Shown here: in pieces, positions 19,842 through 23,213 of the stretch
How the letters are laid out: each line of letters begins with the position of its first letter
Position numbering within the stretch: the stretch's first letter is position 1
Source of the DNA: a virus
Length of the DNA stretch: 34,867 nt
Virus record (IMG/VR): IMGVR_UViG_3300037840_000126
Span: 1 to 34,867 of that record
Reading direction: 5' to 3' (one strand)
Program-made: the position numbers and the translations under genes
Notes under the pieces: generated by a model
The model's input: only the letters and a program-made list of their open reading frames with translations
Database searches by the model: none
What the model was told of the DNA's origin: nothing

Positions 19842-19918
19842 ATGACTTCACGAAAGAAGAGCTAGATGCTCTCATAGAAAAAGAAAATGGCAAAAAAATG
19901 AATGATTATAAAGAATAA
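19838..19918 (+). pseudogene. 26-codon small frame or remnant, MNDFTKEELDAL
   Basis: MNDFTKEELDALIEKENGKK and six more residues. Starts in the overlap with the previous remnant and ends inside the 3' end of the HNH gene. 'MNDFTKEEL' begins many longer small phage proteins, so this may be a truncated copy. No good Shine-Dalgarno. Confidence 0.38.
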
Positions 19919-20361
19919 AAAACATCTTGGGCGCTTTTTCTGCCCTCGATAATAGATTTATTTAATAGTTCAATCTTTAATCTGCTTAGCTTTAAGTCCA
20001 GTTCTTCATGCAATACTCGATCATCATTCGCATGTATTTCAGCATGACAATTGGCACAAAGCATAATGCATTTATCAATTTCACTTCTTAGCATTTCCCA
20101 ATTTCTTACTTTCTTAAATCCAGGCCTTGATTCAAATATTCCAAAGTTTTTTTTTGATGGATCAATATGATGGAAATTGAAAGCCCGCCAGCATTTATCA
20201 TATCCGCATTTTTGACACTCGCCACCACCATACTTAACTGCTTTTAATTTTATATTCTCTAAATACCTCCTACTATAAAAATATTCGCACTTTTTGCATT
20301 TCCACTTTGTACCTGATAATCTGTGAATTGAAACCCCGTGACGATTGCAAATTAACTGCAT
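19906..20361 (-). CDS. Free-standing HNH endonuclease
   Basis: 151 residues. An N-terminal zinc ribbon (C5 to C22-x2-C25) is followed by the HNH core: C49-x2-C52, FHHIDP with H64-H65, and LCANCHAEIH with C102, C105, H106 and H110. This is the fold of phage free-standing homing endonucleases. It is the only minus-strand gene in the rightward early block and lies beside gene remnants, which suggests insertion as a mobile intron-less homing gene. ATG 20361 follows GGCAGGAAAT; a 6-bp hairpin holds the Shine-Dalgarno in its loop. Confidence 0.88.
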   Translation of the reverse strand: MQLICNRHGVSIHRLSGTKWKCKKCEYFYSRRYLENIKLKAVKYGGGECQKCGYDKCWRAFNFHHIDPSKKNFGIFESRPGFKKVRNWEMLRSEIDKCIMLCANCHAEIHANDDRVLHEELDLKLSRLKIELLNKSIIEGRKSAQDVFYSL

Positions 20362-20489: not shown

Positions 20490-20520
20490 ATTATACTAAC
20501 AAATAGTATAATAATTATAC
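20490..20520. promoter_or_regulatory. Operator-like inverted repeat with third half-site
   Basis: ATTATACTA-ACAAA-TAGTATAAT, perfect 9-bp arms, then a further AATTATAC half-site in the first orientation at 20513-20520. Lies about 90 bases upstream of the best promoter of the cassette. May bind a host or phage repressor; the regulator is unknown. Confidence 0.5.
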
Positions 20521-20602
20521 CGAAATAATGCCCTCATAGTTTACAAATAGAAAAACATCAATCCTAAACGATTAATAATCATGTTATAGAAAACCTTTTT
20601 TA

Positions 20603-20631
20603 TTGATTTTGGCGTTTTTTGCTGATAAAAA
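20603..20631 (+). promoter_or_regulatory. Promoter candidate for exported-protein cassette
   Basis: TTGATT, 17-base spacer, TAAAAA with an extended TG upstream (TGATAAAAA), about 75 bases before the first gene. A TTGACA at 20661-20666 has only a poor -10 at 15 bases (TAATAG) and is a weaker alternative. Confidence 0.4.
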
Positions 20632-20681
20632 GTCTCGTGTTAGGTTTTTATGGAAAGATTTTGACAAGGATAGGTTCAACT

Positions 20682-20704
20682 TAATAGGAAGAGAGGAAAT
20701 ATTA
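20682..20704 (+). promoter_or_regulatory. Shine-Dalgarno-in-loop hairpin, exported protein 1
   Basis: Arms TAATA and TATTA with a 13-base loop that includes GAGAGGAAA, one base before ATG 20706. Confidence 0.38.
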
Positions 20705-20705
20705 C

Positions 20706-21125
20706 ATGAAGTGTATATCAAAAATTGCTGGCATCGCTTTATTGTCAACAACAATGAGTTCGCATGCTGGGTTCTGGGCAAACACGGCACATAGCCGTGC
20801 TAACTGCAAGGGGTTCAATGAGTCCATCACTTGGAACTGGAACGAATATCACTGGTGGGAAGTAAAATCAATTCACTTTAAACAATCTGGGAATGGTCCT
20901 GATACTCACGAAGTAATGTCTTGGATGGCTTATACCTGGCGTGCGGCGGCGTATGATTTCTGGCGTGACCCTGCGGGACCTATGGCTAATCAATACCACG
21001 TACAAGGGTATCATTACTATATGGCTTATAATGGCTCTTACGTTTATGACGTTTACACAGATGCAGACGGTTGCAATCTGTATTACGACGGCTGGTGGGA
21101 TAAAAACAAGGCCAATGGAGAATAA
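20706..21125 (+). CDS. Exported Trp/Tyr-rich protein, 139 residues, unknown
   Basis: An N-terminal signal peptide (MKCISKIAGIALLSTTMSSHA) has a likely cut before GFWANTAH. The mature part of about 118 residues is remarkably rich in Trp, Tyr and His (WNWNEYHWWEVKSIHF, YTWRAAAYDFW, GYHYYMAYN) with two cysteines (C34 and C123) that could form a disulfide in the periplasm. ATG 20706 follows GAGAGGAAATATTAC. No family recognised with certainty. It leads a three-gene cassette with an exported and a membrane protein. Superinfection exclusion or host-fitness cargo is possible by inference. Confidence 0.8.
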   Translation: MKCISKIAGIALLSTTMSSHAGFWANTAHSRANCKGFNESITWNWNEYHWWEVKSIHFKQSGNGPDTHEVMSWMAYTWRAAAYDFWRDPAGPMANQYHVQGYHYYMAYNGSYVYDVYTDADGCNLYYDGWWDKNKANGE

Positions 21126-21127
21126 AT

Positions 21128-21967
21128 ATGAATAAAACAACAATATTATTATTACTCGCATCATCAAGTGTTGCTTTTGCAAATACTATGACGAGTCAAC
21201 CCTATGATCCAAAGCCTATGGTTGAAGGGAATAGGAGGGTGGATGAAATTATCGAATGGCATAAGAGCCATCCTGGTGAAATGCCACCATTAACTGAACA
21301 AGAGAAGGAACATTTTTTCACAAGTAAAGGAATACCAGTGCCAGGCTCTGGAGCAAAAATTGTAAATAGCACACAAGGTTTTGGCATGACTAAAAATCAG
21401 GCATCTGTTGTCGCGAGCTTTAATAGTGCACAAAGAACCAAAGGTTATTTCGAGGCTAATAATAAGCGAGCTAAGTTTCTTTTTTCAATGCCTGAAATGG
21501 CCGAGAAGGAATTTAACGAAAGACAGGGAGCTGCATTTAATGCGCATGATACCCATTTATATGAATCAAAGACTAATCTGGTGATGGATTATGGTTACAG
21601 AGGTGTTCCAGAAAATTTATCTAAAAAGGTTATTGGGTTTGCGCCTGAAAGTACTTTTGCAAATGGTGGCTGGAGAGGTGCTGTTGAATTCTTTACTCCA
21701 TTATTTGATTCGGTGTGCGCTTATCATGAAATTAATATCGGGCTAACGCAATCATCAGCTTCAATCCCTAAGGAAGTAGTGACCCATACAGTTAATAATA
21801 AGCTTACAACAATGAACGTTATAGGTTCTAAAGAAAGTGGGTTTGTTTACGAGGTTGAATGGTGGGATAAAACCTACAGGCGCACACTTGAATGTGCATC
21901 TAAAGCCTATACCGAAGAAATGCGCGCTCAAGTTATTGAGCTTGCAAGGCAGATAGACAAAGGATGA
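21128..21967 (+). CDS. Exported protein, 279 residues, unknown
   Basis: Signal peptide MNKTTILLLLASSSVAFA with likely cleavage before NTMTSQ. The mature protein is soluble-looking, with 'HKSHPGEMPPLTEQEKEHFF' near the start and an alpha/beta C-terminal region holding its only two cysteines (SVCAYHE and LECASKAY). Begins two bases after the previous stop, behind GGAGAATAAAT, so it is co-expressed with the 139-residue exported protein. No family recognised. Confidence 0.8.
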   Translation: MNKTTILLLLASSSVAFANTMTSQPYDPKPMVEGNRRVDEIIEWHKSHPGEMPPLTEQEKEHFFTSKGIPVPGSGAKIVNSTQGFGMTKNQASVVASFNSAQRTKGYFEANNKRAKFLFSMPEMAEKEFNERQGAAFNAHDTHLYESKTNLVMDYGYRGVPENLSKKVIGFAPESTFANGGWRGAVEFFTPLFDSVCAYHEINIGLTQSSASIPKEVVTHTVNNKLTTMNVIGSKESGFVYEVEWWDKTYRRTLECASKAYTEEMRAQVIELARQIDKG

Positions 21968-22113
21968 AGAAAAAGGAAGCTAAATTAAAAAATAGTTACG
22001 CTATAATTATCTTGGCTCTATTGGTAGAGGTAGTAGTGGCTTTTTATGCTATATCTTCAGTTGATACTGAAAGTAAAAACAATAAAGGCGTACTAATTGC
22101 GCCAAATAGATAA
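21964..22113 (+). CDS. Single-pass membrane protein, 49 residues
   Basis: Basic start MKKKEAKLKNS, one membrane segment (about residues 12-30, YAIIILALLVEVVVAFYAI), then a polar tail. The ATG overlaps the previous stop (ATGA), so it is the third gene of the cassette. By position it may anchor or partner the two exported proteins at the inner membrane. Confidence 0.72.
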   Translation: MKKKEAKLKNSYAIIILALLVEVVVAFYAISSVDTESKNNKGVLIAPNR

Positions 22114-22144: not shown

Positions 22145-22173
22145 TGAGTTGTTGTTATTTTTGCAACAACTCA
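22145..22173. terminator. Bidirectional hairpin between convergent genes
   Basis: TGAGTTGTTG and CAACAACTCA, perfect 10-bp arms with a 9-base loop. It lies at the meeting of the rightward cassette and the leftward acyltransferase, whose stop codon is inside the stem. A T-tract is lacking, but the position fits a shared terminator. Confidence 0.6.
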
Positions 22174-22728
22174 CACTGTCTTTAAAAATTCTTCCTCAAG
22201 CTTAAGTAAATCTTTTTGTCTTTCCTTTATTCTCTTAGCTGGAATGCCCGCATATATTCCCCAGGGATTAGTGCTATGGTTTACATACGTTAGTGCCCCA
22301 ATAGCGCAACCTTCCCCAATAGTGACACCAGGCATAATTATCGAGTTCGCACCTACTAGCACATGTTTTTTAAGTATGACCGCACCATGAGTAGTTTCTT
22401 TGAAGTTTTCAGGAATTAATGGGTTAGATAGTGCAGCGCCAGAATAGTCATCGCTTGAAGTGAAAATGCTTGTGCTATAAGAAATGCCTACAAAATCGTC
22501 TATTATTATAGGTGCTAGAGATGCGCTTATGAGGCAAAAGGGGGAAACGTGGGAATAATTACCAATTACAAGAGGGCCTTTAAGTAAGCAGTAATCATCT
22601 ATCCTTGAATTATCCCCAATAGATATTTCTTGAATGTTATAAAAGCTAGTTATGGTGCTAATTTTTACATTTTTACCAAGGTGTTTGAAAGGTAAATCAT
22701 CAAGTTGTGCTTGCGTTAAAAAAGCCAT
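22171..22728 (-). CDS. Hexapeptide-repeat acyltransferase (LbH family)
   Basis: 185 residues with left-handed beta-helix turns: IGDNSRIDDYCLL, VIGNYSHVSPFCLI, then after a loop VLVGANSIIMPGVTIGEG-CAIGA and the typical NPWGIYAGIPAKRIKER ending. A catalytic-type His is H114 (TTHGAV). The family transfers acetyl groups from acetyl-CoA to sugars. In phages such genes often modify O-antigen and block re-infection. The gene stands alone on the minus strand, behind its own start (AAGGGATAAA), separated from the phage operons. Confidence 0.88.
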   Translation of the reverse strand: MAFLTQAQLDDLPFKHLGKNVKISTITSFYNIQEISIGDNSRIDDYCLLKGPLVIGNYSHVSPFCLISASLAPIIIDDFVGISYSTSIFTSSDDYSGAALSNPLIPENFKETTHGAVILKKHVLVGANSIIMPGVTIGEGCAIGALTYVNHSTNPWGIYAGIPAKRIKERQKDLLKLEEEFLKTV

Positions 22729-22867: not shown

Positions 22868-23008
22868 ATGAGATTCTATGACGTTGACGGCATGGAAATT
22901 GACGTTCAAGATATTAAATTTTTCATAGATGAAAAAGAATTAACTGAAACGCAGGAAGCTATAGCGGAGATGTTAGATCTTTATGAAGAAAGTATACCAG
23001 TGGGTTAA
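22868..23008 (+). CDS. Small acidic protein, 46 residues
   Basis: Starts MRFYDVDGMEIDVQDIKFFI and is strongly acidic. ATG 22868 follows AAGGCGTATATT. It overlaps the WGR gene by 26 bases and is probably its operon partner. An acidic partner for a WGR domain is noteworthy because that domain binds nucleic acid; DNA mimicry is speculation. Confidence 0.55.
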   Translation: MRFYDVDGMEIDVQDIKFFIDEKELTETQEAIAEMLDLYEESIPVG

Positions 23009-23213
23009 TAGAGAAAAAGCCCGTTACTACACAATAACAATGCAAAAAGATGGAACTAATGACATTGTACTTAATTACGATTGGGGTAGCTGCAACACAA
23101 ATCGCGGTGGTAAGAAGGATATTTATGTTTCCACCGAAGAAGAAGCAGAAACCTACATTGTTAAAATGATAAAAAGGCGCAAAGCTCGTGGATATGAACT
23201 TACAGCGCCATAA
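22983..23213 (+). CDS. Stand-alone WGR-domain protein
   Basis: 76 residues. 'RYYTITMQKDG', then 'VLNYDWGSCNTNRGGKKDIY', then 'STEEEAETYIVKMIKRRKARGYE' reproduces a WGR domain from end to end, although the central motif is WGS (residues 34-36) and not WGR. WGR domains bind nucleic acid in PARPs and in MolR-like proteins; short stand-alone copies occur on phages and plasmids. ATG 22983 lies inside the previous gene, after GGAGATGTTAGATCTTT. It is convergent with the last late gene, three bases away. Confidence 0.72.
   Translation: MKKVYQWVNREKARYYTITMQKDGTNDIVLNYDWGSCNTNRGGKKDIYVSTEEEAETYIVKMIKRRKARGYELTAP

What the first reader, a model, noticed from the sequence alone, without database searches (positions are those of the whole stretch)
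20490..22113. Independent cassette of two exported proteins and a membrane protein
Three coupled genes with their own promoter, operator-like repeat and terminal hairpin encode two signal-peptide proteins with two cysteines each (one extraordinarily rich in Trp, Tyr and His) and a 49-residue membrane protein. They are not part of the virion or replication modules. They look like a complete envelope-acting unit such as superinfection exclusion, secreted toxin or host-fitness cargo.
Basis: partly seen in the sequence, partly recalled or inferred. Interest (0 to 1): 0.6.

Follow-up and report, generated by a model that had tools for sequence, protein, structure and literature searches.

The report
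Mobile pair of exported Legionella-phage proteins
A phage carries two neighbouring genes for exported proteins of unknown families that always travel together through Legionella chromosomes, plasmids and phages, and in bacteria the first gene is often found broken while the second stays intact, as expected if the first makes a harmful protein and the second protects against it.

Summary
The three genes are real. Two of them (ORF1, 139 aa, and ORF2, 279 aa) form a conserved, mobile, always-linked pair of previously unnamed protein families. The third (49-aa membrane protein) has no detectable relative. The pair occurs in about 18 other viral contigs, two Legionella lytica plasmids and about 30% of 143 Legionellales genomes; distant pairs occur in an Oxalobacteraceae relative and other Gammaproteobacteria. 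No Pfam, NCBIfam, PHROG, PADLOC or PDB sequence family matches. ORF1 is a predicted disulphide-bonded beta-sandwich with invariant His/Arg/Glu residues. ORF2's C-terminal domain resembles the Tsi3/DcrB/PsbP-type fold, weakly. The two proteins co-vary (r = 0.87). New evidence for function is an asymmetry of decay: 12 Legionellales loci have ORF1 broken or lost but ORF2 intact, against 2 the other way, although ORF2 is twice as long. This is what a harmful protein and its neutraliser would leave behind. I commit to an exported effector-immunity-like module carried as mobile cargo (confidence 0.45). Rivals are superinfection exclusion and a secreted effector acting on protozoan hosts. It is not a virion component. 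The claimed promoter and terminator are no better than chance by consensus scan.

The parts
20706..21125 (+). ORF1: exported, Trp/Tyr/His-rich protein (139 aa), predicted all-beta sandwich, conserved C34-C123 pair and invariant H57, H103, R31, R79, E39 in the close family; proposed active (effector) partner
21128..21967 (+). ORF2: exported protein (279 aa), helical N-terminal part plus C-terminal alpha/beta sandwich (residues 153-279) resembling Tsi3/DcrB/PsbP-type domains; proposed neutralising partner
21964..22113 (+). ORF3: 49-aa single-TM protein overlapping ORF2 by 4 b; not conserved with the pair
20490..20512 (.). A+T-rich 9-b inverted repeat (ATTATACTA / TAGTATAAT, 5-b loop), possible operator, unproven
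22145..22173 (+). perfect 10-b hairpin between ORF3 and the convergent acyltransferase gene; terminator-like but such sites are no more frequent than in shuffles

Best explanation
ORF1 and ORF2 are an exported effector-neutraliser (toxin-immunity-like) pair carried as mobile cargo. Shown: both families are new to the libraries searched, they are obligately adjacent in one order, they co-vary, they sit in phages, plasmids, integrative elements and isolated chromosomal sites, and ORF1 is lost or broken while ORF2 is kept far more often than the reverse. Inferred: ORF1 is secreted across the inner membrane, folds as a disulphide-locked beta-sandwich, and acts outside the cytoplasm through its conserved His/Arg/Glu site, harming cells that lack ORF2; it leaves the producer by lysis or, in Legionella, possibly by type II secretion. 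ORF2 stays in the periplasm, binds ORF1 through its C-terminal domain and neutralises it. The phage gains by protecting or favouring the cell that carries it against related cells or elements.
For: Linkage and order: all complete viral, plasmid and chromosomal loci found have ORF1 directly before ORF2, including very distant pairs in L080, L083, L167 and L176 at about 15-17% ORF2 identity. Decay asymmetry, read in the DNA: 12 loci ORF1-broken/absent with ORF2 intact (G001, G008, G010, G028, G043, G088, G104, G108, G125, G130, G137, G138) against 2 reverse (G035, G141); P = 8e-5 if hits fall by gene length, 0.0065 if equal. One viral locus (L038) and one distant genome (L081) show the same direction. 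Tandem, diverged, intact ORF2 copies behind a broken ORF1 at G043:C48. ORF2 under purifying selection (dN/dS 0.08-0.16) where it could be estimated at loci whose ORF1 is broken. ORF1 has 25 near-invariant residues rich in His/Arg/Glu/Asn, while ORF2's are mainly structural Gly/Trp/Cys and ORF2 diverges faster (34% against 49% mean identity); distance matrices correlate at 0.87, 0 of 5000 permutations. ORF2's C-terminal domain has the periplasmic immunity protein Tsi3 as its top PDB match (Z 6.3, 102 residues, rmsd 2.9), though at a level common by chance; Tsi3 blocks its effector's active site (PMC3792639).
Against: No toxicity, binding or secretion was shown. No delivery or trafficking domain is fused to ORF1 in any hit. 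The Tsi3 match is below the level that separates relatives from common arrangements, and the same list holds sensor domains and beta-lactamases. ORF1's many Trp codons make nonsense mutations easier, and five of the twelve ORF1 losses look like 5' truncations, so part of the asymmetry may be mutational. Purifying selection on ORF2 averages over time before ORF1 was lost. In the relative L002 the pair follows an early replication gene, an odd place for a cargo toxin.
Confidence: 0.45

Rival explanations
1. Superinfection-exclusion or envelope-modifying pair: ORF1 and ORF2 act together in the periplasm or outer membrane of the infected cell to block adsorption or DNA entry of other phages or conjugative elements. 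ORF2 would be the main protein and ORF1 an auxiliary.
For: Both proteins exported; pair carried by several phage backbones, plasmids and integrative conjugative elements; in some phages it lies behind the early gene block (L002, L032-L034), as expected of a gene acting during infection; ORF2 kept without ORF1 also fits ORF2 being the working part.
Against: No match to any PHROG or PADLOC family; common in isolated chromosomal sites with no phage genes nearby; ORF1, not ORF2, has the enzyme-like conserved residues.
Confidence: 0.22
2. Secreted effector pair acting on protozoan hosts: ORF1 (and perhaps ORF2) is a type II secretion substrate that helps Legionella live in amoebae, spread by phages and plasmids as fitness cargo; ORF2 is its chaperone or partner.
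For: Concentrated in Legionellales, which live in protozoa; Sec leader and disulphide fit type II secretion; L. pneumophila secretes many novel proteins of this kind, several needed in amoebae (PMC6617341).
Against: Distant pairs occur outside Legionellales; obligate pairing and preferential survival of ORF2 are not expected for a host-directed effector; patchy (30% of genomes) and often pseudogenised.
Confidence: 0.2
3. Virion or lysis component of the phage.
For: In the distant relative L081 a lysozyme-like gene lies within about 550 b of ORF2.
Against: Outside the head, tail and endolysin genes of the window; present in plasmids and chromosomes without phage genes; only a minority of phages of the same backbone carry it (6 of 79 Sak4-bearing loci, 56 of which extend 3 kb or more past Sak4).
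Confidence: 0.03

Closest known systems
Periplasmic effector-immunity pairs such as Tse3-Tsi3 of Pseudomonas aeruginosa (type VI secretion)
   Same: Two-gene unit; immunity partner exported to the periplasm; ORF2 C-terminal domain resembles Tsi3 (Z 6.3); immunity gene outlives the effector gene, as in orphan immunity genes (PMC12247911, PMC10470768).
   Different: No sequence similarity; ORF1 is a small Sec-exported beta protein, not a muramidase; no type VI linkage or delivery domain seen; activity untested.
Lactococcin 972 bacteriocins
   Same: Small Sec-exported all-beta antibacterial proteins rich in aromatic residues (considered because of short motif likeness).
   Different: Profile comparison gives probability 0.1%; Pfam PF09683 matches none of the 29 ORF1 proteins and found nothing in 143 Legionellales genomes, although its control also rang nowhere; partner genes differ.
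Novel type II secretion substrates of Legionella (NttA-NttG)
   Same: Exported, Legionella-centred, mostly without known relatives (PMC6617341).
   Different: Those are single genes present in 58-91% of Legionella species; this pair is patchy, mobile and always two genes.
Phage superinfection-exclusion proteins
   Same: Phage-borne exported or membrane cargo proteins.
   Different: Known ones are mostly single membrane proteins or lipoproteins (own knowledge); no family match.

Membership tests
Effector-immunity (toxin-immunity) pairs | two adjacent, co-inherited genes | tested here: met
   (r = 0.87, 0 of 5000 permutations)
Effector-immunity (toxin-immunity) pairs | immunity gene survives loss of the toxin gene, rarely the reverse | tested here: met
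   12 against 2 loci
Effector-immunity (toxin-immunity) pairs | first protein harms cells lacking the second; the two bind | not testable with these tools
   needs expression and binding assays; no complex prediction was available
Polymorphic toxins / type VI effectors | toxin domain attached to a delivery or trafficking module | tested here: not met
   ORF1 is a stand-alone Sec-type protein in all relatives; longest open frame 238 aa, with only a non-matching N-terminal extension
Tsi3-like immunity proteins | sequence relationship to Tsi3 | tested here: not met
   ORF2 profile has no PDB sequence match better than E 0.5
Tsi3-like immunity proteins | same fold of the immunity domain | tested here: inconclusive
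   Z 6.3, rmsd 2.9, 102 residues; top of the list but below the chance ceiling of 7-8
Lactococcin 972 bacteriocins | sequence profile of the family (PF09683) | tested here: not met
   no Pfam hit in 29 members; hhalign probability 0.1 against the 2lgn sequence
Lactococcin 972 bacteriocins | beta-sandwich fold of lactococcin 972 | tested here: inconclusive
   2lgn not listed among matches to the ORF1 model
Superinfection-exclusion systems | relationship to a known exclusion or defence family | tested here: not met
   no PHROG or PADLOC match
Superinfection-exclusion systems | blocks entry of a second phage | not testable with these tools
   needs infection assays
Type II secretion substrates | Sec leader | tested here: met
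   by inspection of leaders in both families; no predictor run
Type II secretion substrates | secretion depends on the Lsp system | not testable with these tools
   needs mutant supernatants
Virion proteins | encoded only in phages, within the structural modules | tested here: not met

The most novel reading that the evidence does not exclude
ORF1 founds a new class of exported antibacterial protein (beta-sandwich with an invariant His/Arg/Glu site) with a dedicated periplasmic neutraliser, spread by phages, plasmids and conjugative elements through Legionella and relatives: a bacteriocin-like competition or element-protection system not described before.
Probability: 0.35. Interest if true: 0.75.

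Novelty: new variant of a known kind. Interest (0 to 1): 0.52.

Why it matters
Few proteins are known through which Legionella fight one another or through which their phages alter the host, and phages of Legionella are scarcely described (own knowledge). Here is a compact two-gene unit, absent from the family libraries searched, that is found in about a third of Legionellales genomes and on phages and plasmids, and that decays in a telling order. If the reading is right it gives a new antibacterial protein family with its antidote. If instead it is exclusion or a protozoan effector, it is still a clear, testable phage contribution to Legionella biology.

Tried and rejected
Direct family look-up of ORF1, ORF2 and ORF3 in Pfam, PHROGs, NCBIfam and PADLOC: nothing above chance. 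PDB sequence profiles: no match. Phage genome records: no match to ORF2, and none to a distant ORF1 relative. ORF1 fold search: many unspecific Ig/FN3/CBM-like sandwiches, best Z 6.2, not informative. ORF2 in BFVD: nothing. Lactococcin 972 idea: rejected by profile comparison. ORF3 relatives: none. A third conserved gene: 17 of 51 cassettes have some ORF of 35 aa or more close behind ORF2, but of different kinds; only three of these are short proteins with a strong TM segment. A search with the widest ORF1 alignment was not possible, too little conserved. Papers on Legionella LME-1 exclusion or Legionella lactococcin-like bacteriocins: nothing useful in the library.

Full report
What is there. 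The window is a 34,867-b virus record with a P22-like coat and portal, terminase, O-like replication protein, Sak4-like annealing protein and SSB. At 20706-22113 it has three + strand genes: ORF1 (139 aa), ORF2 (279 aa) and ORF3 (49 aa, one TM), with gaps of 2 b and -4 b. ORF1 and ORF2 have Sec-type leaders by inspection and two cysteines each in the mature part; ORF1 is 24.6% Trp+Tyr+His.

Relatives. A first search found one close virus (L002, 70-75% identical), another virus (L003) and two L. lytica plasmids with identical copies. Profile searches then gave 18 loci in bacterial contigs, nearly all Legionella or Legionellales, one in Solimicrobium silvestre, and 16 IMG/VR contigs; two more viral contigs came in through the Sak4 search. 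In every complete locus ORF2 follows ORF1 directly on the same strand. Among 143 genomes of the order, ORF2 is found in 43 and ORF1 in 42. Of 67 ORF2 places, 55 have ORF1 within 1.5 kb upstream, and all but one of the full-length ORF2 genes do; the rest are fragments. Outside the order it is rare: 3 further genomes in a sample of 369 Gammaproteobacteria, 2 besides Solimicrobium in 195 genomes of its family, none convincing in 398 of the phylum. Several of these distant relatives still have ORF1-like and ORF2-like genes side by side (L080, L083, L167, L176). Conserved throughout are S30, C34, E39, H57, V99, G101, H103 and C123 of ORF1; ORF2's two cysteines are not kept in the distant members.

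Where it sits. The cassette occurs in L. lytica plasmids near a Tn3 transposase, in chromosomes beside conjugation or integrase genes (L009, L015, L018) and as a lone insertion among housekeeping genes (L006, L020, L021) (gene identities by inspection). Among viruses sharing the window's Sak4 protein only 6 of 79 loci carry it (56 of them extend at least 3 kb past Sak4), so it is accessory. One Legionellales genome (G134) holds a prophage with a Sak4 gene 66% identical and related tail, fibre and nuclease genes; no cassette was found in the 37 kb fetched, and the prophage points to a Legionellales host for the window phage.

The third gene and the signals. ORF3 has no relative, is absent from L002 and L003, and other cassettes have different or no third genes. 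Small one-TM proteins do recur beside some cassettes (L019, L035, near L007 and L045), and distant members have a multi-TM protein behind ORF2 (L083, L167); whether this is meaningful is open. The inverted repeat 20490-20512 and hairpin 22145-22173 exist, but consensus promoters and terminators are no more frequent than in shuffled sequence.

Folds. ORF1 is predicted as an all-beta sandwich (pLDDT 80.8), with only unspecific Ig/FN3-like matches. ORF2 is predicted well (87.8): a helical N-terminal part and a C-terminal alpha/beta sandwich whose best PDB matches are the immunity protein Tsi3 (Z 6.3), BT_1490 (3hlz) and mycobacterial TiME and PknH extracellular domains, with DcrB lower down. The Tsi3 paper itself relates Tsi3 to 3hlz, Mog1 and PsbP and notes that such folds serve protein-protein contact (PMC3792639). 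The Z value is within the range common for unrelated folds, so this is a hint only.

The decay test. If ORF1 is harmful and ORF2 protective, ORF1 should be lost first. I classified every Legionellales cassette and then read the DNA of the discordant ones. Thirty-five have both genes intact. Twelve loci have ORF1 broken (frameshifts, nonsense, internal deletion, truncation) or missing with ORF2 open over its full length. Two have ORF1 intact and ORF2 broken. With ORF2 twice as long, chance favours the opposite; P = 8e-5 by length, 0.0065 with equal odds. Two of the twelve are named isolates (L. fairfieldensis, L. impletisoli). At G043 a broken ORF1 is followed by two diverged intact ORF2 copies. 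Where a near relative allows an estimate, ORF2 of ORF1-broken loci shows dN/dS of 0.08-0.16, though this averages over time before the loss. The same direction is seen in viral locus L038 and in the distant G344 (L081). ORF1 and ORF2 distances correlate at 0.87, with no permutation reaching it. Caveats: ORF1's Trp codons are prone to nonsense mutation, five losses look like 5' truncations, and many genomes are drafts or metagenome bins.

Reading. Shown: two new, linked, co-varying, mobile families of exported proteins, with preferential survival of the second. Inferred: ORF1 acts outside the cytoplasm and is costly; ORF2 neutralises it. The alternative that ORF2 is the main actor (for example in exclusion) also explains its survival, but not why ORF1 has the conserved enzyme-like residues. 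A protozoan-directed secreted effector remains possible given the Legionella focus (PMC6617341). A virion role is practically excluded.

Novelty. Neither protein belongs to a family in the libraries searched. I file it as a new variant of a known kind (effector-immunity-like pair) because the inferred logic is known while the proteins are not; membership in any named family failed or could not be tested.

Noticed in passing
window 22171-22728 (-): Hexapeptide-repeat acyltransferase gene directly behind the cassette, also next to the pair in L002 (63% identical); possibly modifies surface polysaccharide (serotype-conversion-like cargo).
   Followed up: partly
window 19906-20361 (-): HNH endonuclease gene inserted on the opposite strand between the early gene block and the cassette; looks like a homing-type insertion.
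   Followed up: no
L164 (G134:C1:1755000-1774900): Prophage in a Legionellales genome sharing the Sak4, SSB, nuclease and tail/fibre genes with the window phage; suggests the host range and a temperate relative.
   Followed up: partly
L004 and L005: Two plasmids of one L. lytica strain carry the same segment with the cassette, Tn3 transposase and the start of a polyketide synthase: a recent duplication between plasmids.
   Followed up: no
L017:1212-1709 and L071 (G138:C98): Two cassettes are followed by coupled genes for exported proteins with a similar stretch near the N-terminus (IL.E..W..G), a possible alternative third gene.
   Followed up: no
L019, L007, L045: Small one-TM proteins of about 50 aa with a similar pattern (KWFYLG...GF..AF..F in L019 and L045) lie beside several cassettes; too short to relate to ORF3.
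   Followed up: no
window 22983-23213 (+): 76-aa protein with a WGR domain (Pfam E 9e-7), unusual as a stand-alone phage gene.
   Followed up: no
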